Source: a virus. Taken from it: 32,077 nucleotides of DNA. The position numbers were made by a program, and so were the translations under genes. Where the stretch lies: positions 1 through 32,077 of the IMG/VR virus record IMGVR_UViG_3300009428_000036; one strand, given 5' to 3'. A model generated the notes under the pieces. That model saw only the letters and a program-made list of their open reading frames with translations. It was not told the origin of the DNA and searched no databases. Shown piece after piece: positions 455 to 32,077 of this stretch (the stretch's first letter is position 1; each line of letters begins with the position of its first letter).

Positions 455-1318
455 ATGTTAAAAAAAGGATTGTTATTAATTATTACTATTATACTTACTA
501 GCTGCGGAGCACAGTGGAAATACACAACTATAAACCATGCTAGTCATACACAGCAATTTACAACAGTCCCGGATTTTGGAGTTGAAGTTGATACCTTAAC
601 ATTTTCACAAGTCAGATGGAAACTTAGAACAGACTTTAACTTTAGGTATGATTTAGCACAGTATGCATTAAGCCAACCAGCTTCTTTTGATTGGAATAAT
701 AGACTACTAGGTAATAGGTACAACTACAATAACACTTACTTAGGATATAACTACCATTGGGATAGAACACAAATGTGGAACGATTGGGTATGGGGGTATA
801 ATGGCTGGAATTCTTGGGGGCAACCTCATAGATGGTCACCATTTGGGTATGATAGATGGGGATATAATATGCACTATGGTTGGAATAATCACGGATGGGG
901 ATACAATAACTGGATGGGCAACGCTCATTATGGCTGGAACAGCGGATATGGACACAACAGTGGGTTCTACAGTAGGTATAGAGGTACAAACGTAGCTTAC
1001 CACACTAGTAGAAGGAGGTATACACCAAGAGGTACTAGTTCTAGCCGTATTGTGAATAGAAAAAGAACAACTAATTATAATAAACAACAAATACCAAGTA
1101 AAAATGATAAAACTGTTAGAATTACTAAGAGAAGACCTATCCAAACCCAAAGCAGTAGTAATGGCAGGAGGAGCAGGAGCAGGCAAATCATTCCTAATAA
1201 AACAATTAGGACTAACAGGACTCCCAATGTTCAACCCAGACAAGTACGTAGAAGACCCAGCACATCCATTCCACAACAATCTAGGAGCAGCAGCAGGTCA
1301 AGTAAACAAAGACGTTGA
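455..1318 (+). CDS. Trp/Tyr/Gly/Asn-rich lipoprotein with basic C-terminal tail
   Basis: The N terminus is a classic lipoprotein signal: MLKK, a hydrophobic stretch, then lipobox LTSC with C17 as the lipidation residue. Residues about 85-175 are extremely rich in W, Y, G, N and H, with repeated GWN and WGYN units. From about residue 178 the protein is rich in R and S. The last ~71 residues are encoded in DNA that also encodes the N terminus of the downstream P-loop kinase in another frame. Similar aromatic-rich lipoproteins occur in Bacteroidota, so this may be a host-derived surface protein. Phage lipoproteins can act in superinfection exclusion (for example T5 Llp), but nothing here shows that. 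The signal peptide is a confident call; the function is unknown. Confidence 0.75.
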   Translation: MLKKGLLLIITIILTSCGAQWKYTTINHASHTQQFTTVPDFGVEVDTLTFSQVRWKLRTDFNFRYDLAQYALSQPASFDWNNRLLGNRYNYNNTYLGYNYHWDRTQMWNDWVWGYNGWNSWGQPHRWSPFGYDRWGYNMHYGWNNHGWGYNNWMGNAHYGWNSGYGHNSGFYSRYRGTNVAYHTSRRRYTPRGTSSSRIVNRKRTTNYNKQQIPSKNDKTVRITKRRPIQTQSSSNGRRSRSRQIIPNKTIRTNRTPNVQPRQVRRRPSTSIPQQSRSSSRSSKQRR

Positions 1319-2045
1319 AGCAGCATCGGAATTAGGTAAGTCTTTTATATGGGATACCACAGCATCTAATCCTTCTAAAATAAATGCATTAATAGACAAA
1401 GGGTATGATGTATATATGGTTATGGTATATACTCATCCAATGATAGCTTTTATAAATAACTTCTCAAGAGAAAGGAGAGTTCCAAAAGCAGCAGTATTCT
1501 CTACTTGGAGAAATGTATATCAACTACTAGGTCAATATAAACAAACTTTAGGAGACAACTTTTCTTTGTTTATTAATATGAGAGAAAATAAGTTTGCTAA
1601 AGAAGTTGAAGAATTCAATAAATCTGCAGAAAAAGGTCCTCAAGGAGTATCCGATTATTTGGAAAGATATATGGAAGCTAATGGAGGTAAACAAGCATAC
1701 GGTTCATCTTTTAGATCTGACTACGAACTACCATCAGAAGTAGCAGTAAAAGCATTTGAAGAAGAAATGAGAAATATAGAGTTCGATAGAAATAACGAAT
1801 CTATAACAAAGGAACTTAAGAAATACTGGATTAAATTTTACGACAAAAACGGAGCCGGACCAGGTGACGTTAAAATGAAAAGTAAAATAAACACAATCCA
1901 AAATAGAAACTTAAGAGATAAGGATAAAGCAAAAGAAGTACTTGACGTTATAGCAAGTATGGTTGTCGATAAGAGATTCCAAGAAGAACTTAAACACTCA
2001 GACGCAGCTGAGATAGATAAAAAAGTACAAGCATTCTTAAAATGA
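1104..2045 (+). CDS. Zeta-toxin-like P-loop kinase
   Basis: The Walker A motif GGAGAGKS covers residues 22-29. It is followed by NPDKY (D46), FIWDTTASN (81-89) and an arginine-rich SRERRVP segment (121-127), the arrangement of zeta-toxin/polynucleotide-kinase-type P-loop kinases. It would phosphorylate a small molecule or nucleic-acid end; the substrate is unknown. The first 215 nt, including the whole P-loop, overlap the lipoprotein gene in a different frame, and even the alternative ATG at 1161 lies inside the overlap. The N terminus (LLELLRED) contains an LxE site like those of the head proteins. The gene ends in an ATGA overlap with the nucleotidyltransferase gene, so the two are probably translationally coupled. 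No epsilon-like antitoxin is nearby. Confidence 0.72.
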   Translation: MIKLLELLREDLSKPKAVVMAGGAGAGKSFLIKQLGLTGLPMFNPDKYVEDPAHPFHNNLGAAAGQVNKDVEAASELGKSFIWDTTASNPSKINALIDKGYDVYMVMVYTHPMIAFINNFSRERRVPKAAVFSTWRNVYQLLGQYKQTLGDNFSLFINMRENKFAKEVEEFNKSAEKGPQGVSDYLERYMEANGGKQAYGSSFRSDYELPSEVAVKAFEEEMRNIEFDRNNESITKELKKYWIKFYDKNGAGPGDVKMKSKINTIQNRNLRDKDKAKEVLDVIASMVVDKRFQEELKHSDAAEIDKKVQAFLK

Positions 2046-3352
2046 TAGCATTATACCCAGGAGCATTTAAACCACCACATAGAGGCCACTTTGAAGTAGT
2101 AAAGAAACTTCTTAATGGAAACCACGGAGGAAAAGTATACGATATTAATTCATACGCTGACGCTGGAACAGGCGTACTTAATGGTAAAGGTGACGAGCTA
2201 GATAAGATAGATAAGGTATACGTATTTATTGGCGGCGGTACAAGAAACGGAATAACTAAAGAAGAATCAATCGCGGTATGGAACATATACGCTAAGTACC
2301 TACCTGGACTAGTAGTGATGGATGGAGAAAAAAATCCAATGTTTGCTGCTAAGGACTATGCAAAAGCTAATCAAAATAAAAAGTTTTATGCTATTACAGG
2401 GATTAGAGCACAAGAAGATCTTCCGGATTTAAAAAGGGTCACTACATTTAAGAACAGGGAGAACGTAGAAGGATTAGTAATACCAGCAGGCACAGACTCT
2501 AACGTAAGAGCAACAGATTTTAGAAATGCAATACTCTCAGGTAACTTAGACGATGTACTTGACTTTTTCCCTCAAGAACTATCCAAAGATGAGATACTAA
2601 AAATAATGAACATGTTAAAAGCAAGTATTATAGCAGAGATAATGCAAGAAGATCTTGAAAAAAAGCTAAATGAAATGTTTAACGTAGAGGATAAAATCGA
2701 ATGTGAAAATTGCGATTGGAGCTGGGATATCTCAAGCGGAGGTGATGATTTATATATGTGTCATAAATGTGGACACAATAACGAACCAGCAAATAGAGCC
2801 TTAGAAGAAGGTTCTTCCGGAACAGCTATAGCTCCAAAAAGTGTTATGAGATCAGCAGATAGAGTTAAACTAGTAACTTTATATAATAGGTTGAGAAACA
2901 CTATTGGAGACCAGTACTATGAAATAGGTTTTCATCATGATCATATTATAATAAAAAATAAAGACGAAGATCAGAGAGTAGGATTTGATTATACTCCTTT
3001 TATGGGCTCTATACTTGAATATATGATAGATGAAGGCATGAAAATAACTCCTCTACCAGAAGTAAAGATTAAAAAGGATATAGCAGAATCTTCTAATTTC
3101 TTCGGAAGAACAGCATACTACGATCCTAATAAAAAAGAAGTTGTTTTATACGTTCAAGGAAGACACCCTAAAGATGTAATGAGATCATTTGCACATGAAA
3201 TGGTTCACCACAAACAAAATTTAGAAGGTAGACTAGGAGCAATAGGAACTACTAATACAAATGAAGATAGTAATTTAATGGAACTAGAAAAAGAAGCCTA
3301 CCTAGAAGGAAATATAACTTTTAGAAATTGGGAAGATTCTGTTAAAAATTAG
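2042..3352 (+). CDS. Nucleotidyltransferase - zinc ribbon - metallopeptidase fusion
   Basis: Three modules are visible in 436 residues. Residues 1-190 form an HxGH nucleotidyltransferase: YPGAFKPPHRGH (H13, H16) and a second signature GTDSNVRATDFR (150-161), as in NMN/pantetheine/cytidylyltransferase-like enzymes that transfer an NMP to a phosphorylated acceptor. Residues 221-243 form a zinc ribbon (CENC, then CHKC). The C-terminal third has HEMVHH (385-390) with downstream glutamates (ELEKEAYLEG, E414-E422), a zinc metallopeptidase signature. The junction (191-215) contains LxE-type sites (IMQED, LNEMF) that could be processed. The start overlaps the kinase stop (ATGA), suggesting a kinase/nucleotidyltransferase pair. 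Domain calls are good; the true substrates are unknown. Confidence 0.75.
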   Translation: MIALYPGAFKPPHRGHFEVVKKLLNGNHGGKVYDINSYADAGTGVLNGKGDELDKIDKVYVFIGGGTRNGITKEESIAVWNIYAKYLPGLVVMDGEKNPMFAAKDYAKANQNKKFYAITGIRAQEDLPDLKRVTTFKNRENVEGLVIPAGTDSNVRATDFRNAILSGNLDDVLDFFPQELSKDEILKIMNMLKASIIAEIMQEDLEKKLNEMFNVEDKIECENCDWSWDISSGGDDLYMCHKCGHNNEPANRALEEGSSGTAIAPKSVMRSADRVKLVTLYNRLRNTIGDQYYEIGFHHDHIIIKNKDEDQRVGFDYTPFMGSILEYMIDEGMKITPLPEVKIKKDIAESSNFFGRTAYYDPNKKEVVLYVQGRHPKDVMRSFAHEMVHHKQNLEGRLGAIGTTNTNEDSNLMELEKEAYLEGNITFRNWEDSVKN

Positions 3353-3399
3353 TTGCTTTATTGAATTATTATTCGTATATTATGTATATAAAAACGGTT

Positions 3400-3786
3400 A
3401 TGGATATACATTTAATACAGGAAGTAGTTAAGGAAATATTACCAAAGGTAATTAAAAAGTACGGGTATAGTAAATTTACAGAATGTACTCCTTATGTAGA
3501 ATACGAAAAGAGCATTTACGCAAGACTTGCAGGAGAAGAAGACGATGGAGAATTAGGAGAAGAATGTCCTGATGCTGAGTACGATCGTATCGATAATTCA
3601 ATTATATTTTACTACCCTCAAATGACTAGTAGAAAACATATAATAGAAACACTAATACATGAATATCAACATTACCTTCAGTCTCCAAGCTGGATGACTA
3701 GGTACTATAATATGGGGTACAGGTACGATAACCACCCTTACGAATTAGCAGCAACATCAGAAGAAGTAAATTGGAATAAGATATGA
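3400..3786 (+). CDS. Small HExxH zinc metallopeptidase-like protein
   Basis: HEYQH gives the zinc ligands H87 and H91 and the catalytic E88, numbered from the ATG at 3400. The helix ELAATSEE (115-122) may supply the third ligand. A preceding Asp/Glu-rich loop (46-60) leads into a hydrophobic strand (IIFYYP). The frame is open further upstream (TTG at 3361, ATG at 3382). I prefer 3400 because it leaves a 47-nt gap like the other transcription-unit gaps here, with an AT-rich TATATAAA-type stretch, and gives a compact helical N terminus. This is the second HExxH protein in a row; the C-terminal domain of the preceding gene is the other. The end overlaps the next gene by ATGA. The substrate is unknown. 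Confidence 0.65.
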   Translation: MDIHLIQEVVKEILPKVIKKYGYSKFTECTPYVEYEKSIYARLAGEEDDGELGEECPDAEYDRIDNSIIFYYPQMTSRKHIIETLIHEYQHYLQSPSWMTRYYNMGYRYDNHPYELAATSEEVNWNKI

Positions 3787-4328
3787 AAAATAGCATAGTA
3801 GAATTACTAGAGGCACATCCTCTACCGGAAGAAAAAGAAAAACCACCATACAAAATATACTGTGATATGGATGGAGTACTGACTAATTTTGAATCTAGGT
3901 TCGAACACTACTCAGGAATGGCCCCTAAAGAATATGAAAAGGCTAACGGCCAACCTGCTTTCTGGAACCTTATAGATGTGGAAGTAGGAGTTAAATTCTG
4001 GGCTGGAATGGACTGGATGCCTGAAGGTCAAAGACTATGGAACTTTATATCTCCATACAATCCCGACTTATTAACATCTCCTTCTAGAGATAATAATTCT
4101 AGACTAGGTAAGAATATATGGGTTAAGAATAAATTATCTCCTAAACCCAAAGTAATATTTGCTTATTCAAAAAGTAAACAGAGGTATGCTAATGAAAATA
4201 GTATACTAATAGACGATAAGCCATCTAACATAGACGAATGGGCAGCAAGTGGAGGAATAGCAATAAAATGTAAAGACGGTGATGTAACTTCTGTAATTAG
4301 TAAACTAAAAGAATTAGGATATGAGTAA
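3783..4328 (+). CDS. HAD-superfamily 5'(3')-deoxyribonucleotidase-like phosphatase
   Basis: Motif I is CDMDGVL, with nucleophile D28 and acid/base D30. Motif II is LLTSPS (T98/S99). A lysine-rich segment at 110-132 supplies motif III, and LIDDKPSN (142-149, D144/D145) is motif IV. Size (181 aa) and the 'xMDGVLTxFE' start fit the NT5C-type deoxyribonucleotidases that many large phages use to adjust dNMP pools. The start overlaps the metallopeptidase stop by 4 nt (ATGA), and the end overlaps the next gene by 8 nt. The N terminus (IVELLEA) carries an LxE site, but this could be chance in a Glu/Leu-rich helix. The family is confident; the exact nucleotide is inferred. Confidence 0.8.
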   Translation: MKNSIVELLEAHPLPEEKEKPPYKIYCDMDGVLTNFESRFEHYSGMAPKEYEKANGQPAFWNLIDVEVGVKFWAGMDWMPEGQRLWNFISPYNPDLLTSPSRDNNSRLGKNIWVKNKLSPKPKVIFAYSKSKQRYANENSILIDDKPSNIDEWAASGGIAIKCKDGDVTSVISKLKELGYE

Positions 4329-4936: not shown

Positions 4937-5293
4937 ATGACACAAAAGCAATTATTAGAATCCGTACTTACTGAGCTTACTTCCATAAAAAAGCATATGC
5001 CTAATGGGGAACTTAAGCAAATGCAAAAAGACATGGTAGATCTTAAAGACGACATATCGGACCTTAAATACACTTTACTTAACCCAGACAATGGAGTTAT
5101 AGTAAATACGAATAAAAACTCTGAATTTAGAGAGATAATGCAAGCTGGAGATAAAGAGTTTCAACTTAAATTGCTTGAACTACAGGAATTAAAGAGGTGG
5201 AAAGAAGGAGTTACTAAAGCTTTATGGATTCTATTTACTGGTCTAGCAGGTGTTATAATTAAATTACTAACAGAGGCAGTTAAGAATGGCTAA
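4937..5293 (+). CDS. Coiled-coil plus C-terminal transmembrane protein (XhlA/holin-accessory-like layout)
   Basis: In 118 residues there is an N-terminal heptad-like helix (5-48, with regularly spaced L/I and charged residues), a short polar linker, a second charged helix (63-90) and one hydrophobic segment (about 92-111, ALWILFTGLAGVIIKLL) followed by a short polar tail. This layout matches XhlA-type haemolysin/holin-accessory proteins and other small tail-anchored phage membrane proteins. No endolysin gene is seen next to it, so a lysis role is only a possibility. A strong late-promoter-like box lies 22 nt upstream, suggesting late expression. The start is the first ATG after the box. Confidence 0.6.
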   Translation: MTQKQLLESVLTELTSIKKHMPNGELKQMQKDMVDLKDDISDLKYTLLNPDNGVIVNTNKNSEFREIMQAGDKEFQLKLLELQELKRWKEGVTKALWILFTGLAGVIIKLLTEAVKNG

Positions 5294-5304: not shown

Positions 5305-5940
5305 ATGAAGTTAGCAGAATTAAAACAACTAGTACGAGAAGGCCTCTGGGCTAATATCAATGCTAAGAAAAAAGCAGGTAAGAAATCTTCTCATAAGAAC
5401 TCTAAAGCGTATAAGGCAGCATCAAAAGCCGGGAATGCACTAGAGAAGACAAAGAATGAAACTGCCCTCGCTCTAGATAAACTGACAGTACTGAGTGTAA
5501 TTGACGGAGATAGGAACTTGGACAACGAACACTTACGTAAATTATTTGCAGATTCTGTTGGCACTTTCTACATATATACCAATGAGGAGGGAGAGTATGA
5601 AAATACTAAAAAAATAAGCAAACAAGATGCATATAAGTATGTTGACTACTATAATGCTAGATTGAAAAGAAAAAAAGATAAAGTAGAGAAATTAGGAGCT
5701 GAATTAGGAGTTTTAGGAGTTGAATCAGAACTACAATTCAAAGTAGGTGAACTATCAGCTGACCCCTCTACATTTTCAGCAAACGAAGGAGATCATAAAC
5801 CAATGAATCCCGGAATACTAAAAGATAGGTTAGGTAAACTATCCTGCAGTAAAGTAAGAACAGCGAAAGGAAAGTTAGAAGATAAGGGTACGACCTATGC
5901 TAAAGCTCTCCAAAGGTATTTAAACTACCATTGCCAATGA
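5305..5940 (+). CDS. Lysine-rich protein with capsid-targeting-like N terminus
   Basis: I do not recognise the family. The first 14 residues (MKLAELKQLVREGL) closely match the starts of the genes at 9475 and 15478 and end in a VxE|G site resembling the T4 prohead protease signature. This is followed by a very basic stretch (KKKAGKKSSHKNSKAYK, 21-37), a mixed domain and a C-terminal segment with two cysteines (SCSK, YHC). Basic internal head proteins of T4 (IPI-III) carry the same arrangement: a short targeting peptide, a cleavage site, then a basic body. I infer that this protein is packaged in the head. It overlaps the next gene by 4 nt (ATGA at 5937). Confidence 0.6.
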   Translation: MKLAELKQLVREGLWANINAKKKAGKKSSHKNSKAYKAASKAGNALEKTKNETALALDKLTVLSVIDGDRNLDNEHLRKLFADSVGTFYIYTNEEGEYENTKKISKQDAYKYVDYYNARLKRKKDKVEKLGAELGVLGVESELQFKVGELSADPSTFSANEGDHKPMNPGILKDRLGKLSCSKVRTAKGKLEDKGTTYAKALQRYLNYHCQ

Positions 5941-17944: not shown

Positions 17945-18523
17945 ATGGCAAATGTATTAGTAAATGTTACACCATTTAAATCTATCCTTAAAGAATCTAA
18001 GGAAAGACCGGGAGTATATGAAGTTGAAGGAGTAATGCAACGAGCTGGTGCAAAAAACCAAAACGGAAGAATATACGAAAAGGACCTCTTAATGAGAGAG
18101 GCTAAGAAGTATGTTGATGAATTCGTTAAAAACGGAAACGCTTTCGGAGAATTAGATCACCCGGAATCAGCAGTAGTATCTCTTAAGAATGCTTCACATG
18201 TAGTTAAAGACCTATATTGGAATGGAGACGACTTAATGGGTAAAGTAGAACTACTAAATACACCAGCAGGAAATATAGTAAAAGAGATAATTAAAGCAGG
18301 ACATACTATAGGAATATCCTCTAGAGGTACCGGTTCAGTACAACAAACAAACGAAGGGTACTTAGAAGTACAATCAGATTTTGAATTAGTATGTTGGGAC
18401 TTTGTATCTAATCCATCTACACACGGAGCTTTTATGAATCCCGTATCACTTAACGAAGGTACTCAACAATTAGACAAGTACGGAAAGGTACATAGTATAA
18501 TTAACGACATACTAAGAGCATAA
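17945..18523 (+). CDS. 21: Prohead core protease (T4 gp21-like)
   Basis: This is the serine protease that matures the prohead by cutting scaffold, capsid and internal proteins at (L/I)xE sites. Key segments are NQNGRIYEKDLL (39-49), GELDHPES with catalytic His72, and GISSRGTGS with Ser125 or Ser126 as nucleophile; ELVCWDFVSNPS is the downstream conserved block. Length is 192 aa against 212 in T4. Its own N terminus has ILKE|S (residues 15-18), a candidate self-cleavage site. The ATG follows the 740-aa stop by 3 nt. A hairpin terminator follows its stop, separating it from the scaffold/capsid unit. Confidence 0.93.
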   Translation: MANVLVNVTPFKSILKESKERPGVYEVEGVMQRAGAKNQNGRIYEKDLLMREAKKYVDEFVKNGNAFGELDHPESAVVSLKNASHVVKDLYWNGDDLMGKVELLNTPAGNIVKEIIKAGHTIGISSRGTGSVQQTNEGYLEVQSDFELVCWDFVSNPSTHGAFMNPVSLNEGTQQLDKYGKVHSIINDILRA

Positions 18524-20032: not shown

Positions 20033-21601
20033 ATGGAAATTAATCAATTATTAGAAGGGTCTCAAAGTAACTTCAAAAACTTGCAAGCAGATGCTTCTCG
20101 TTTAGCGGACAAATGGACTCAATCAGGACTCTTAGAAGGATATTCTAACGAGATCGAGAAAAACAACATGGCTATGATTCTTGAGAATCAAGCTAAACAG
20201 ATTGTATCTGAAGGATCAACAACTGGAACTGGATCATCATTTTCTGCCTCTGGTGGAGAGCAGTGGGCAGGAGTAGCTTTACCATTAGTACGTAAGGTAT
20301 TCGCTCAAATCGCAGCTAAAGACTTTGTATCTGTACAACCAATGAACTTACCTTCAGGACTTGTATTTTACCTAGACTTTAAATACGGTACAACAAAAGA
20401 TGGATTCACAGTCGATGACAATATGTACGGAAACGTATCTACTGCTAACGATAAGATGGACGCAGACCAAGATGCAGCAGGTGGATTATACGGCGCTGGT
20501 AGATTCGGATACTCAATCAATGCGAAGGCAGCAGCAGGAGCAGCAGTAACAGTAGCAAACGCAACTTCTGCATCTATCAACTTTGATGATAGCTTAGCAA
20601 TAGCATCATTTGATACAGTATCTATCGCTTTACCTGCAGATGCAGACAAAGAAGGAGTAAGAGCTTTCGGCCTTGCAGGAATAGCAGTATTACCTCAATA
20701 CACGAAAATTGTAGGATCTAATGTAGTATTCGTAGTAGTAGACTCAGCAGTAACAAATGCCGCTACACACGTATTAAACTACCACGTTGCACCAAATGAC
20801 AATACAAGAGGAGACTTTGAAGATGCTAACGCAACTCCAATTTCTATTCCAGAAATCAATGTAGAACTTGCTTCTGAAGCAATTGTAGCTAAGACTAGAA
20901 AGTTAAAAGCACAATGGACACCAGAATTCTCTCAAGATCTTAACGCATACCACAGTATTGATGCTGAGGCTGAGTTAACTTCTTTATTGAGTGAGTATAT
21001 CTCAATGGAGATTGACTTAGAGATCTTAGATATGTTAATTCAAGGAGCTGTAACAACTGAACGTTGGTCAGCTAAATCTAACAAAAACTATTCTGCAGCA
21101 GGCGTATGGGAAACTAGCGGAGCTGGAGAAGGCGGATTCTATAATACTCAAGGACAGTGGTTCCAAACATTAGGAACTAAAATCCAAAAAGTATCTAACA
21201 AGATTCACCAGAAAACATTAAGAGGTGGTGCAAACTTCCTAGTATGTTCTCCAAGTGTAGCTACAATCCTAGAATCAATTCCAGGATATGCTGCTAACAC
21301 AGACGGTGATAAAATGGATTTTGCTTTTGGAGTACAGAAAGTTGGTTCATTAAACGGACGTTACAAAGTATATAAGAACCCTTATATGACTGAAAACACT
21401 ATCCTTACAGGATACAGAGGTTCTCAGTTCTTAGAAACGGGTGCTGTTTATGCTCCTTACGTGCCATTAATGATGACACCTCTAGTATACGATCCAGCTA
21501 CCTTCACACCACGTAAAGGTATCATGACTCGTTATGCTAAGAAAATGATCAGACCAGAATTCTACGGAAAGATTTTCGTTAGCGATTTAGCTACTGTATA
21601 A
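20033..21601 (+). CDS. 23: Major capsid protein (T4 gp23-like)
   Basis: This is the HK97-fold shell protein. Length (522 aa) is almost exactly that of T4 gp23 (521). Diagnostic blocks include GGEQWAGVALPLVRKVF, LPSGLVFYLDFKYGTT, KLKAQWTPEFSQDLNAYHSI, LTSLLSEYISMEIDLEILDM, and near the C terminus YKVYKNPYM and TPRKGIMTRYAKKM. The N-terminal ~60 residues form the removable propeptide: LLE|G at 6-9 and again at 33-36, ILE|N at 49-52 and VSE|G at 58-61. The last is closest to the T4 cleavage position (residue 65) and is followed by a Gly/Ser/Thr-rich start of the mature chain. It is followed by a strong terminator. Confidence 0.96.
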   Translation: MEINQLLEGSQSNFKNLQADASRLADKWTQSGLLEGYSNEIEKNNMAMILENQAKQIVSEGSTTGTGSSFSASGGEQWAGVALPLVRKVFAQIAAKDFVSVQPMNLPSGLVFYLDFKYGTTKDGFTVDDNMYGNVSTANDKMDADQDAAGGLYGAGRFGYSINAKAAAGAAVTVANATSASINFDDSLAIASFDTVSIALPADADKEGVRAFGLAGIAVLPQYTKIVGSNVVFVVVDSAVTNAATHVLNYHVAPNDNTRGDFEDANATPISIPEINVELASEAIVAKTRKLKAQWTPEFSQDLNAYHSIDAEAELTSLLSEYISMEIDLEILDMLIQGAVTTERWSAKSNKNYSAAGVWETSGAGEGGFYNTQGQWFQTLGTKIQKVSNKIHQKTLRGGANFLVCSPSVATILESIPGYAANTDGDKMDFAFGVQKVGSLNGRYKVYKNPYMTENTILTGYRGSQFLETGAVYAPYVPLMMTPLVYDPATFTPRKGIMTRYAKKMIRPEFYGKIFVSDLATV

Positions 21602-27731: not shown

Positions 27732-30700
27732 ATGCCAAATTGGAAAAAACTGATAGTTAGTGGTTCCGACGCTAACTTGAACTCGCTTAACATTACAAAC
27801 GATCTAACTGGATCAAATGCACTTATTACCAACGATTTAGATGTACTAGGAAACGTTGGTATTGGAACGACTAGTCCTACTGCTAGGTTGGATATACTAA
27901 CAAATTCAGCAACCGGTACTAATAGTATTGATAGGCACGTTAGATTTAGAGCTGATAATGGTGAACAAAGATTTGACTTCAATATTGGAAGAAGCGGAAA
28001 CTCAGCATTACTGGGGATGTACAACGAATCCGAAACAGAGGCAGTTAGAGTTGCTACAAATGGCAATTCTTACTTTAACGGAGGCAACGTAGGTATAGGA
28101 ACTACTAGTCCTGATGCAAACTTAGAGATAGCAGACACTACTCCAACCCTAAGGCTGACAGATACTAGAAACTTAAATGTAGGAGATTGGGACGATGTTA
28201 GTTTAGGTAAACTACAATTCAAAACATCCGATACCACCTCCCCAGGAGCAAGAGTATTATCAGAAATTGAAGCCTACAGTAATGTAGGAGCTGCATCAGG
28301 ACCAAACTCAGACTTGAGATTTAAGACTTCTGGAATTACTGATTCTTCTGCACTCACTAGAATGACTATCAAATCAGACGGAAATGTTGGAATTGGAACA
28401 AATAGTCCTACGCAAAAACTTCATATAGATGGAAATGCTCTTATTAGTGCAGAAAGATATTATTATGTAGCAGGTGGTGGTTCTGGTTTTGGTTCTGATG
28501 CTAGTGGTAATTTTAAAATAAGACAAAATGGTTCAGATTTAATATTTGGTTCTGGAGACAATGTTGGAATTGGAACAAGTAGTCCTGCAGATAAACTACA
28601 AGTCATAAGTAGTGATAATGTAAGTACAACAAAAATTATAAGTGCTTATTCATTAAGTCAATCACAAAACACATCTCTTGGTTACAATAGTTTAATGGCT
28701 AGCTATTCATTAGATATTAAAACACTAAGCACACAACCTATAAGATTTTTTCCAAACAGTTCTGAAGCAATGCGATTAACGTCAGATGGCAACGTTGGAA
28801 TTGGAACTACTAGTCCAGGTTATAAATTTGAAGTAAATTCTGGGAATGCAAACAATGTAGCTAAATTTGTAAGTACTGATGGAGGTGGTACTATTACAGT
28901 AGCAGATTCTGGAGGAGAAGTAGGTTTTAGTAATATAGGTAATAATATATATTTTAAAACATCTTCTTCTCAAATAAATCAAATGTCTATTCTGAACTCG
29001 GGAAGAGTGGGAATCGGCACTACTTCACCGAGTGAGAAGCTACACGTTTTTGGAGGAGCTGCAGCTATTAAAATAGATTCTACAACTAACGAAGCCTCTT
29101 TAAAATACGACAATTCAACCACAACAGCTACTATAAAGTTAGCTAACAGCGATTTAAAAACTGAGTTAGGTGGTTCTGAAAAAATGAGGATTATTGCTAA
29201 CGGAAATGTTGGTATCGGAACAACATCTCCTAGAGCAAAACTAGCAGTATCTTTTAACGGTGGTCATACAACAGGTACTATTGGTATAGGAAATTCTTCA
29301 TTTGATTTATTTAATCCTTTAGAAGCAAACACAGACGAAAAAGGTTCTATATTAACATTTAGTGACAATTATTTTGATGGTACTAATTATAATCCCACAA
29401 CAAGAGCAGCATTAAAAGGTGGAACAGATAATACCGGTAATACGGCAGACGGATTTTTAGCGTTTTATACAGACTCATCAGGTGCAAACACAATGCCTGA
29501 GAGAATGAGAATTGACCATGATGGTAACGTAGGTATCGGGACATCTAGTCCTAATGTACCTTTAGAAGTAAACGGAGTAAATACAACATCTGGTCATGGA
29601 GAAGGGTTAAGAGTTACTAGACCAGGGCTTAGTTCACAGTACATAAGCATTGATGAATCCGATGGGTCTAAGCATAGAATAAGAGCAGTAGGAGATAAGC
29701 CTTTACACATACATTCTAACTCAAGTACTTACGGTATTAATTTTTATACAAACAGTACTGAAAAAGTAACAATTCTTGCAAATGGCAACGTTGGTATAGC
29801 AACTACTAGTCCAGGTCAGAAACTGCACATAGCCGGTAACATGAGGCTAGAGAATCAGTTGTACGATTCATCAGACTCGCAAGGTTCTGTTAACCAGGTG
29901 CTTAGTAAAGTTGCTGCTGGTACGAAGTGGGCCAACGTTTCCTCCCTATACACGGAAACAGACACACTAGACTCAGTAACAGATAGAGGAGCAATAACCA
30001 CTAATAATATAGCTGTTGGGAACTTAGAAGTAAACAGTAATATCTCCACTCCAAATAATACATCACTAAGACTACAACCTAGCGGCTCTTCAGGATGGGT
30101 ATTCTTAGGTAGTCCAACAGACGGTACTAAAATATACCATTATAGCAGAGGAGATAACGGACAGAACACAATATTCGATTTTGATGCTGGTTATTATAAA
30201 ATTAATACAACTTCTACAAGCGGATTTAACTTAACTCAAGACACATTAATATCAGGAGATTTAACAGTATCCGGAGTACTTGCCTTAGGAAGCGATGTTA
30301 CCTTATTTAGAGATGGAGTTAACATTTTAAGAACAGATGATACTTTCCATGCAAATAATAGTATACATGTAGGAGGTGCTGGTAAATTGTACGATAGAGC
30401 TAATACTAGCAACTATATAGAATTAGCTGATACAATTAATATCTCAACTGATACCTCTATTGACGGCGATTTAACAGTAACTGGAAAAGTAACCGCACAG
30501 GAATTCCACACAGAATTTGTTTCTGCTTCTATTATGTATGAATCAGGTTCTACCAAGTTTGGAGATACATCAGATGATACTCACGACTTTACAGGAAGTA
30601 TAAACATAACAGGAGATACAACGGATTTAATTCACCTTAAGACTACAACAGCAAATGTAGGAGGCCTTAAATTAGAAAGTACCCATATCTCTAGAATCCG

Positions 30701-32077
30701 AATGAAGAGTGGAGCTTCTACTGGAGAGATTTTTATGGATGGAGTAGGTGGAGCTATATCCGGTGGTGGATACATATTTAATACCCCTACTACCAGAAAT
30801 ACCTACCACTTTATGGTAAATAGTACCCCTGAGATGTCGCTAGTAGCAGGCAGTTTAGGAATAGGAACAGGGTATCTACATAATGCAGCACCTAAAGATA
30901 AGTTAGACGTTAGTGGAAGTATAACAATCAGAGATATAGGTGCTACAAGAGGTATAAGACGAGATAACGATGCTTATGATCTGAGGTTGATGGGAGGTAC
31001 ATCTCTTACCGATGGAGCTTATATATCACTTAGTGGAGATATAAGAGGTGGAGTAGGAAATGCTGTAGCAGGTAAGGTTTCCATAGCACAAGGTGGAGCT
31101 GCATATGCAACTAGATCCGCTATATCAAGTAGCATGGCTTTTAATGCTGTGTCAAATGCAGATACCACCACAGACATGTTGATACAAGGTTCAACAGGAA
31201 ACGTTGGTATAGGGACGACTAGCCCTTCAACAAGATTAGAAGTTGCGGCTTCAGCAACTACGAGTGTAGATATAGCTCATTTTTCAAACTCAAATGATGT
31301 TGTTAAAATAAAACATGCTTTAGATGGAGTAGGTTCAGGTATAACATCTATTTTTGATGCCTCTAATAATGAAGACATCAGATTAAGCGCTCAATCTAAC
31401 AGTTGGTTTAACGCCGGTAACGTCGGGATCGGGACGACTAGTCCTAGTGCTAAATTAGAGGTAGATGGAAATGTTAAAATAGGAGACGCAGCCACAGGGG
31501 CAATATTTGCTAAATCAGGAAATGATTTTTTAATAACAGGAGTAGATACAGGAGGAAATGCGTTTAATTCTATTAATTTAAAAGCAGATTCTTTAGATAC
31601 AGGTTTATACATTCAAAAAGACACAAACAACGTCGGGATCGGGACGACTAGTCCTCAATCAAAACTACATATAGAAACAGGTAGCGGAGGCACTTACAAT
31701 CCAAACGCAAATCACGATGATGTAACTATTGAAGGTAGTGGAAATATTGGGTTGCAATTATTTAGCCCTAATACTTCTTACCAGTATATAGCTTTTGGAG
31801 ACCCTAACAGTGTTAACGCAGGTTATTTAAGATATTATCACGGAGCCAATGAAATGGTTTTCAGAACTAATGGAAGTGATAATATGGTTATTAATTCAGC
31901 GGGCAACGTTGGTATTGGAACGACTAACCCTAGAACTAAGCTAGATGTAGGTGTAACTGGAAATTTAGGAGCTGTTACTAATAAAGTAATATCTGCTACT
32001 TTTGATGGTGGTTTTTCTACAACAAATTCATTACAATATAATGTAAATGCTTTTATTGGAACAACTTTTGGAACAAC
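27732..32077 (+). CDS. Giant repeat-containing tail fibre, 3' end beyond the window
   Basis: Codon-by-codon reading from the ATG at 27732 shows no stop to the right edge (at least 1448 codons), so the gene is truncated by the window. The N terminus MPNWKKLIVSGSD matches that of the 319-aa fibre protein and is likely the virion anchor. The body has 14 copies of a GNVGIGTTSPxxKLxV-type motif (two of them degenerate), spaced mostly 150-320 nt. Between 29,814 and 31,196 the motif is almost absent. That part carries other fibre modules: QGSVNQVLSKVAAGTKW (29,880-29,930), two GDLTV(S/T)G strands, and TAQEFHTEFVSASIMYESGS. Such proteins usually end in an S74-type chaperone, which would lie outside. 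The role is host recognition. Confidence 0.88.
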   Translation, partial: MPNWKKLIVSGSDANLNSLNITNDLTGSNALITNDLDVLGNVGIGTTSPTARLDILTNSATGTNSIDRHVRFRADNGEQRFDFNIGRSGNSALLGMYNESETEAVRVATNGNSYFNGGNVGIGTTSPDANLEIADTTPTLRLTDTRNLNVGDWDDVSLGKLQFKTSDTTSPGARVLSEIEAYSNVGAASGPNSDLRFKTSGITDSSALTRMTIKSDGNVGIGTNSPTQKLHIDGNALISAERYYYVAGGGSGFGSDASGNFKIRQNGSDLIFGSGDNVGIGTSSPADKLQVISSDNVSTTKIISAYSLSQSQNTSLGYNSLMASYSLDIKTLSTQPIRFFPNSSEAMRLTSDGNVGIGTTSPGYKFEVNSGNANNVAKFVSTDGGGTITVADSGGEVGFSNIGNNIYFKTSSSQINQMSILNSGRVGIGTTSPSEKLHVFGGAAAIKIDSTTNEASLKYDNSTTTATIKLANSDLKTELGGSEKMRIIANGNVGIGTTSPRAKLAVSFNGGHTTGTIGIGNSSFDLFNPLEANTDEKGSILTFSDNYFDGTNYNPTTRAALKGGTDNTGNTADGFLAFYTDSSGANTMPERMRIDHDGNVGIGTSSPNVPLEVNGVNTTSGHGEGLRVTRPGLSSQYISIDESDGSKHRIRAVGDKPLHIHSNSSTYGINFYTNSTEKVTILANGNVGIATTSPGQKLHIAGNMRLENQLYDSSDSQGSVNQVLSKVAAGTKWANVSSLYTETDTLDSVTDRGAITTNNIAVGNLEVNSNISTPNNTSLRLQPSGSSGWVFLGSPTDGTKIYHYSRGDNGQNTIFDFDAGYYKINTTSTSGFNLTQDTLISGDLTVSGVLALGSDVTLFRDGVNILRTDDTFHANNSIHVGGAGKLYDRANTSNYIELADTINISTDTSIDGDLTVTGKVTAQEFHTEFVSASIMYESGSTKFGDTSDDTHDFTGSINITGDTTDLIHLKTTTANVGGLKLESTHISRIRMKSGASTGEIFMDGVGGAISGGGYIFNTPTTRNTYHFMVNSTPEMSLVAGSLGIGTGYLHNAAPKDKLDVSGSITIRDIGATRGIRRDNDAYDLRLMGGTSLTDGAYISLSGDIRGGVGNAVAGKVSIAQGGAAYATRSAISSSMAFNAVSNADTTTDMLIQGSTGNVGIGTTSPSTRLEVAASATTSVDIAHFSNSNDVVKIKHALDGVGSGITSIFDASNNEDIRLSAQSNSWFNAGNVGIGTTSPSAKLEVDGNVKIGDAATGAIFAKSGNDFLITGVDTGGNAFNSINLKADSLDTGLYIQKDTNNVGIGTTSPQSKLHIETGSGGTYNPNANHDDVTIEGSGNIGLQLFSPNTSYQYIAFGDPNSVNAGYLRYYHGANEMVFRTNGSDNMVINSAGNVGIGTTNPRTKLDVGVTGNLGAVTNKVISATFDGGFSTTNSLQYNVNAFIGTTFGT
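27849..31931 (+). repeat. VGIGTTSP-type coding repeats in the fibre (14 copies)
   Basis: 30-nt cores start at 27849, 28083, 28380, 28557, 28788, 29001, 29202, 29523, 29784 (VGIAT variant), 30849 (degenerate LGIGTG), 31197, 31416, 31626 and 31902. Each begins a strand-turn unit, usually followed by KLxV or a similar strand. Copies at 31416 and 31626 share 27 identical nucleotides (31419-31445 and 31629-31655). Confidence 0.9.

What the first reader, a model, noticed from the sequence alone, without database searches (positions are those of the whole stretch)
1104..3352. Kinase plus nucleotidyltransferase-zinc ribbon-metallopeptidase fusion
A zeta-like kinase is coupled by ATGA to a protein joining an HxGH nucleotidyltransferase, a CxxC/CxxC ribbon and an HExxH peptidase. 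Kinase plus nucleotidyl transfer is a known pairing in cofactor synthesis (as in NadR), but the added protease domain does not fit that and the substrates are unknown. It may be an uncharacterised modification or effector module.
Basis: partly seen in the sequence, partly recalled or inferred. Interest (0 to 1): 0.6.

Follow-up and report, generated by a model that had tools for sequence, protein, structure and literature searches.

The report
Phage enzyme cassette tagged for packaging
A marine bacterial virus carries a kinase and a fused nucleotidyltransferase-metallopeptidase that look like enzymes packed into its head and injected with the DNA, the kinase bearing a head-targeting tag like that of phage T4; this is inferred from sequence, with mass-spectrometry support only for relatives.

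Summary
In detail: a P-loop kinase (1104-2045) is coupled by ATGA to one protein (2042-3352) joining a PPAT-like nucleotidyltransferase, a CxxC/CxxC ribbon and an HExxH zincin. It is no artefact: the window is a fragment of a T4-like phage, and homologs of the fusion lie in at least 593 viral contigs and in Flavobacterium phage immuto. My reading differs from cofactor synthesis. The kinase N-terminus (MIKLLELLRE|D) resembles the T4 capsid-targeting propeptide (IPIII MKTYQEFIAE|A, gp24 MAKINELLRE|S). Its [LI]xE is present in 88 of 88 distinct homologs, and hydrophobic positions match those mapped in T4 IPIII. The phage encodes a gp21-type protease (37% identical to T4's). Where homologs fuse a second peptidase, the junction carries [LIVM]xE|G in 18 of 18 distinct proteins. 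Cyanophage homologs of the nucleotidyltransferase found in virions by mass spectrometry start with the same kind of tag (three read here). Best explanation: a head-packaged, injected enzyme cassette related in concept to polyvalent proteins, with prohead-protease sites as connectors. Against it: the window's fusion protein has no N-terminal tag, the motif does not predict virion content generally in two cyanophages, and substrates are unknown. The ribbon is an optional mobile module.

The parts
1104..1133 (+). T4-like capsid-targeting propeptide of the kinase (MIKLLELLRE), predicted cut after E10
   Evidence: E10 invariant in 34 of 34 aligned kinases; [LI]xE in 88 of 88 distinct N-termini; residues 1-11 have pLDDT under 50; hydrophobic E-6, E-3, E-2
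1104..2045 (+). P-loop kinase, zeta/PNK-like
   Evidence: Pfam Zeta_toxin E=3.9e-10; PDB profile hits PezT, zeta; Foldseek PNK E=1.7e-6; VIA Z 13.4
2042..3352 (+). fusion protein: PPAT-like nucleotidyltransferase, zinc ribbon, zincin metallopeptidase
2042..2635 (+). PPAT-like HxGH nucleotidyltransferase domain (residues 1-198)
   Evidence: VIA-align Z 16.8 to PPAT over residues 1-197; invariant G15, H16, R161
2615..2638 (+). LKASIIAE segment at the end of the transferase domain, possible internal protease site (weak)
   Evidence: E199 at least 90% conserved in 25; I[IVK]xE in 97 of 112; lies in a predicted helix
2702..2773 (+). optional zinc ribbon CxxC...CxxC
   Evidence: read directly; present in 12 of 188 NT-MP ORFs of the two plain architectures; the same module in other proteins
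2801..2809 (+). LEE|GSSG site before the peptidase
   Evidence: E before the xSSG motif in 58 of 60 proteins that have the motif, of 112; hydrophobic P3 in only 42 of 60 (I, V, L, F)
2810..3352 (+). zincin metallopeptidase domain MP1 (HEMVHH, downstream E416)
   Evidence: invariant H385, E386, H389, H390, E416 in 25 of 25; weak Pfam DUF6782 and Peptidase_M91
3361..3786 (+). second HExxH protein (HEYQH)
   Evidence: Pfam SprT-like E=0.028, below cut-off; homologs downstream of the fusion
3783..4328 (+). 5'-nucleotidase-like HAD protein with N-terminal LLE|A
   Evidence: PHROG 2643 E=2.1e-22; [LI]xE in 90 of 92 distinct N-termini
4937..5293 (+). small protein with targeting-like N-terminus
   Evidence: [LI]xE in 81 of 81 distinct N-termini, but control residues 25-46 also have it in 36 of 78
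5305..5940 (+). protein with N-terminus MKLAELKQLVRE|G
   Evidence: family only 20 of 41
17945..18523 (+). prohead maturation protease, gp21 type
   Evidence: PHROG 207 E=4.7e-52; 37% identical to T4 gp21 over 154 columns, E=5e-32
20033..21601 (+). major capsid protein with LLE|G near its N-terminus
   Evidence: PHROG 138 E=8e-75; sequence read

Best explanation
The kinase and the fused transferase-peptidase belong to a swappable set of enzymes that this T4-like phage loads into its prohead and injects with its DNA. The kinase (and probably the HAD nucleotidase) carry a ten-residue T4-type capsid-targeting propeptide that the gp21-type protease removes. Fused homologs use [LIVM]xE sites between domains as connectors that the same protease could cut. 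Once inside the cell the enzymes act before phage genes are expressed: the kinase phosphorylates a small molecule or nucleotide, the PPAT-like domain transfers a nucleotidyl group to a phosphorylated acceptor, and the zincins cut host proteins or finish processing. Shown: domains, conservation, protease gene, sites, and published virion detection of cyanophage transferase homologs. Inferred: packaging and cleavage in this phage, injection, and all substrates (chemistry about 0.3 likely as stated).
For: Kinase E10 invariant in 34 of 34, like the Walker A lysine; [LI]xE in 88 of 88 distinct N-termini against 1 of 80 at residues 25-46, and 0 of 81 in the unrelated neighbour family g4321. Conserved hydrophobics at E-6 (42 of 43), E-3 and E-2 (43 of 43) are the IPIII positions 4, 7, 8 and 10 mapped by mutation (passages of PMC9026906, which also gives gp21 specificity L/I-X-E). 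Motif enrichment in residues 4-24: T4 control 8 of 10 known gp21 substrates v 26 of 185 other genes, p=1.4e-5; immuto genes 175-204, 18 of 28 v 27 of 168, p=3.6e-7, none at 25-46 or 47-68. Junction MP1-MP2: [LIVM]xE|G in 18 of 18 distinct fusions. gp21-type protease present. Virion mass spectrometry of transferase homologs: S-SM1 T4-GC190, S-CREM2 ORF154, S-SCSM1 ORF91, S-SZBM1_140. Three were read and begin MKKFSAFLNE|A, MKNFSSFLTE|A, MKSFLQFLKE|A; E10 in 29 of 29 distinct cyanophage N-termini. The NT profile finds S-SM1_190 at E=4.6e-7 with Z set to 1000.
Against: The window's fusion family has no N-terminal [LI]xE (0 of 35), nor has the immuto protein; its packaging is by association or by an internal site only. 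HTVC008M's transferase reads MKTLKELLRK, without the Glu. In the stretch of S-CREM2 read, the motif is in 3 of 9 virion-detected and 5 of 30 other genes (one row, gp144, was read out of frame), and in S-SCSM1 in 1 of 7 and 3 of 18, so it does not predict virion content generally. The authors of S-CREM2 and S-SCSM1 warn that the enzymes could be contaminants. The stricter seven-residue motif finds only 4 of 10 T4 substrates. NT-MP1 junction sites are weak: P3 is Lys in 11 of 60. Sequences counted are related, not independent.
Confidence: 0.58

Rival explanations
1. A cofactor pathway made during infection, not packaged: the kinase makes a phosphorylated precursor and the PPAT/NMNAT-like domain makes a dinucleotide such as NAD or dephospho-CoA, for instance to counter NAD-depleting defence; the peptidase is a passenger.
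For: Kinase beside transferase also in HTVC008M; PPAT fold with NadD next; authors propose NAD synthesis for cyanophage homologs.
Against: Kinase nearer PNK/zeta than nicotinamide riboside kinase; kinase replaced by a Pol-beta-type NTase in immuto and a few contigs; does not explain the conserved unstructured N-terminus or the junction sites.
Confidence: 0.2
2. A core or scaffold role: these proteins enter the prohead as assembly parts and are chopped up, so the enzymes matter little after infection.
For: The same N-terminal motif occurs in scaffold, protease and capsid protein; T4 core proteins gp22, gp67 and gp68 are destroyed by gp21 (passages).
Against: Catalytic residues are strongly conserved, and cyanophage homologs survive in virions.
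Confidence: 0.12
3. A nucleic-acid repair set: PNK-like kinase, HAD phosphatase and nucleotidyltransferase heal RNA or tRNA cut by host defence.
For: Foldseek best hit is bacterial PNK; HAD protein weakly matches PHROG 415 polynucleotide kinase, E=0.0016.
Against: No ligase seen among the genes scanned; HxGH transferases usually act on small molecules (recalled); metallopeptidases unexplained.
Confidence: 0.08

Closest known systems
T4 internal proteins and Alt (capsid-targeting sequence, gp21 processing)
   Same: Ten-residue N-terminal propeptide ending [LI]xE with matching hydrophobic positions; gp21-type protease encoded
   Different: Cargo is kinase, PPAT-like transferase and zincins; sites also lie between fused domains; packaging not shown here
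Virion-associated cytidylyltransferase/NMNAT-like proteins of cyanophages (T4-GC190)
   Same: Homologous transferase domain (S-SM1); detected in virions in four phages; same kind of N-terminus in the three read
   Different: No fused peptidase in the three read; window copy lacks the N-terminal tag and is coupled to a tagged kinase
Polyvalent proteins (Iyer 2017, PMC5512222; abstract, passages and the Peptidases section read)
   Same: Multi-enzyme chains with zincin metallopeptidases and Pol-beta NTases, predicted to be injected
   Different: Modest architectures; processing sites fit the head protease; no polyvalent MPTase Pfam match at E<=1
Zeta toxin / PezT kinases and bacterial PNK
   Same: P-loop kinase fold and Walker A
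   Different: No antitoxin partner recognised; extra helical C-terminal region; N-terminal propeptide
Phosphopantetheine adenylyltransferase (CoaD)
   Same: Fold and [HT]xGH, C-terminal Arg motif
   Different: About 20% identity, phage context, substrate unknown

Membership tests
T4 capsid-targeted internal proteins | N-terminal about 10-residue propeptide ending [LI]xE | tested here: met
   Kinase: 88 of 88 distinct N-termini
T4 capsid-targeted internal proteins | Same propeptide on the fusion protein 2042-3352 | tested here: not met
   0 of 35 distinct N-termini
T4 capsid-targeted internal proteins | gp21-type protease in the same phage | tested here: met
   37% identity to T4 gp21, E=5e-32
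T4 capsid-targeted internal proteins | Protein present and processed in the virion | not testable with these tools
   No virions; published detection only for cyanophage homologs of the transferase
Polyvalent proteins | Two or more disparate enzymatic domains in one chain | tested here: met
   Transferase plus zincin; up to transferase, superoxide dismutase, zincin, HAD in L074
Polyvalent proteins | Injected with DNA | not testable with these tools
   inferred only
Polyvalent proteins | Zincin of the described polyvalent clades | tested here: inconclusive
   No such Pfam model at E<=1 for the window protein; weak DUF6782, M91 in homologs
NadR / NMNAT plus ribosylnicotinamide kinase | NMNAT-type transferase | tested here: inconclusive
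   PPAT Z 16.8, NadD Z 13.3
NadR / NMNAT plus ribosylnicotinamide kinase | Kinase of the riboside kinase type | tested here: inconclusive
   PNK Z 13.4, NRK1 Z 10.0
Zeta toxin | Pfam PF06414 match above cut-off | tested here: met
   39.9 bits, cut-off 22.3
Zeta toxin | Cognate antitoxin and UDP-GlcNAc kinase activity | not tested
   No antitoxin searched for; activity needs an assay

The most novel reading that the evidence does not exclude
T4-like phages of marine Flavobacteria and relatives build their injected arsenal as cut-to-length polyproteins: capsid-targeting tags and head-protease sites serve as universal connectors, so enzymes (kinase, Pol-beta NTase, PPAT-like transferase, two zincins, HAD nucleotidase, even superoxide dismutase) can be shuffled, joined or split without losing delivery, and the head protease frees them inside the prohead.
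Probability: 0.35. Interest if true: 0.8.

Novelty: new variant of a known kind. Interest (0 to 1): 0.6.

Why it matters
Nucleotidyltransferases keep turning up in cyanophage virions and it is open whether they are cargo or contamination. A T4-type targeting tag on the virion-detected homologs gives a simple, testable answer, and would help predict the cargo of uncultured T4-like phages. If the junction sites are cut, polyvalent-type proteins gain a defined processing mechanism.

Tried and rejected
NadR-like cofactor synthesis as sole explanation: ranked below, see rivals. Assembly artefact: rejected. Ribbon as a defining part: rejected. A universal rule 'motif means virion': rejected by S-CREM2 and S-SCSM1. 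MP2 N-termini (16 of 18) and g4937 were not counted as strong evidence because start choice is uncertain in the first and the control region also scores in the second. The exonuclease row (5 of 77) is not usable: the window copy is cut at its start. Fold search of the peptidase: the model's second half is barely tested, as the transferase fills the list; no fold match is claimed for it. HAD protein had no PDB sequence hit at E<=0.1. Genome contigs gave 4 loci only, one labelled Winogradskyella. Literature: capsid targeting sequence with T4-like and marine, 4 papers listed, capsid targeting with cyanophage, 1 paper, none of which as listed reports this cassette; searches likewise; only the held open-access library was searched, so absence elsewhere is not claimed.

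Samples: one search used 196 immuto genes of 70 aa or more out of 238 CDS (shorter ones, and minus-strand ones I did not enter, were left out); one search used 195 T4 genes from bases 1-150000 of 168903, leaving out short, spliced and internal-start ones. One search's 43 kinase ten-mers were chosen because they hold [LI]xE; the unconditional counts are those. Loci overlap, so distinct sequences were counted where said.

Full report
What is there. The window is itself one virus record of 32,077 bases. It holds T4-like head genes: terminase, portal, gp21-type protease and major capsid protein. At 1104-2045 lies a 313-aa P-loop kinase and at 2042-3352 a 436-aa protein, joined by ATGA. The kinase matches Pfam Zeta_toxin (E=3.9e-10). 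Its model (mean pLDDT 88) is closest to bacterial polynucleotide kinase (Z 13.4), with zeta/PezT and AvrRxo1 also in the Foldseek list. The 436-aa protein has a PPAT-like transferase (Z 16.8, residues 1-197), a ribbon and a zincin; mean pLDDT is 77 with pTM 0.49, so the domain arrangement is not reliable.

How widespread. In the loci fetched, the census has 176 ORFs transferase-zincin, 12 with the ribbon, 25 with a second zincin fused on, 4 with a Pol-beta-type NTase in front (one of them with ribbon), and 2 with the HAD nucleotidase fused on. Flavobacterium phage immuto has a 907-aa version with Pol-beta NTase, transferase and two zincins. L074 is a 1014-aa chain with a superoxide dismutase inside (Pfam E=4.4e-30). 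Order around it is conserved: exonuclease, kinase, fusion, HAD nucleotidase.

The N-terminus. Aligning 34 kinases, including HTVC008M's, shows E10 invariant although residues 1-11 are not part of the fold. The pattern is hydrophobic at E-6, E-3 and E-2 with variable residues between. In T4, the first ten residues of IPIII suffice for packaging; positions 4 and 7 matter for targeting and 8 and 10 for processing; gp21 cuts after L/I-X-E (PMC9026906, passages seen). T4 gp24 begins MAKINELLRE and the window kinase MIKLLELLRE. As a control the loose motif in residues 4-24 marks 8 of 10 T4 substrates and 26 of 185 other genes. In immuto it is concentrated in genes 175-204 (18 of 28 v 27 of 168); with the stricter motif, genes 175-194 give 10 of 19 v 8 of 168, p=2.4e-7, and the whole cluster gives 0 of 28 at offsets 20 and 40 and 1 of 28 at 60. 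By family: kinase 88 of 88, HAD nucleotidase 90 of 92, but lipoprotein-like g455 0 of 39, g4321 0 of 81 and the fusion itself 0 of 35.

Link to virions. The transferase family extends to cyanophages: tblastn with HTVC008M's protein matches 531 phage records, and the profile built here finds S-SM1_190. That protein (T4-GC190) was detected in purified S-SM1 virions (PMC3037559, passages). Homolog-type enzymes were also detected in S-CREM2 (PMC10665884, passages and one section), S-SCSM1 (PMC9602691, passages) and S-SZBM1 (PMC9146016, passages). The S-SM1, S-CREM2 and S-SCSM1 proteins each begin with a tag of ten residues ending FL.E|A; in 80 cyanophage loci all 29 distinct N-termini have E10. 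I did not test by profile that the S-CREM2, S-SCSM1 and S-SZBM1 proteins are homologs; that rests on annotation and reading.

Junctions. In 18 of 18 distinct proteins with a fused second zincin the linker has [LIVM]xE|G, with variants MAEG, VNEG, ITEG, MNEG, VAEG, INEG, LSEG, LNEG: the middle residue drifts while Glu and the hydrophobic stay. Where the transferase has a leader, all 7 cases listed show [LI]xE before it. L077 joins transferase to Pol-beta domain through TLLVE|GGNVF while immuto's separate gene 181 starts MGGNVF. The transferase-zincin junction is weaker: Glu before xSSG in 58 of 60 of those with the motif, hydrophobic P3 in 42 of 60.

Interpretation. I favour head-packaged, injected enzymes. 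This joins three known themes: T4 capsid targeting, cyanophage virion transferases and polyvalent proteins (PMC5512222, abstract, passages, Peptidases section). What is not known is the substrates, and whether the window's fusion, lacking its own N-terminal tag, enters by binding the kinase, by its internal LKASIIAE segment, or not at all.

Limits. Sequence counts are of related proteins. The motif is short and did not separate virion from non-virion genes in the parts of S-CREM2 (3 of 9 v 5 of 30) and S-SCSM1 (1 of 7 v 3 of 18) examined. Published detections may be contamination, as their authors say. No experiment on this phage exists in what I read.

Noticed in passing
455-1318 and 1104-2045: The lipoprotein-like ORF 455-1318 overlaps the kinase gene by 215 bases in another frame, and its relatives do so in many contigs (e.g. 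L001, L002, L008) but not in all (L015, L030). The overlap holds the kinase's targeting tag; a possible overprinted gene end.
   Followed up: partly
2702-2773; L032, L052, L061, L065, L068-L072, L078: The CxxC-W-W...CHKCGH ribbon is a mobile module placed in different proteins, sometimes right after a targeting-like N-terminus.
   Followed up: partly
L218, L212 linkers: A basic module (NINAKKK...SHGNSKA type) of the 5305-5940 family is inserted in the linker between the two zincins.
   Followed up: no
L074:2880-5924: A superoxide dismutase domain inside a 1014-aa transferase-zincin-nucleotidase chain.
   Followed up: partly
L084 (immuto 18607-36971): Immuto carries 7-deazaguanine DNA modification genes (QueC, QueD, QueE, FolE, DpdA, QueF as annotated).
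   Followed up: no
L084-L086: Immuto genes 3, 41, 102 and 156, far from the cluster, have the same kind of N-terminus and may be further packaged proteins.
   Followed up: no
27732-32075: A very long repetitive structural-type ORF with NVGIGTTSP repeats runs off the window end.
   Followed up: no
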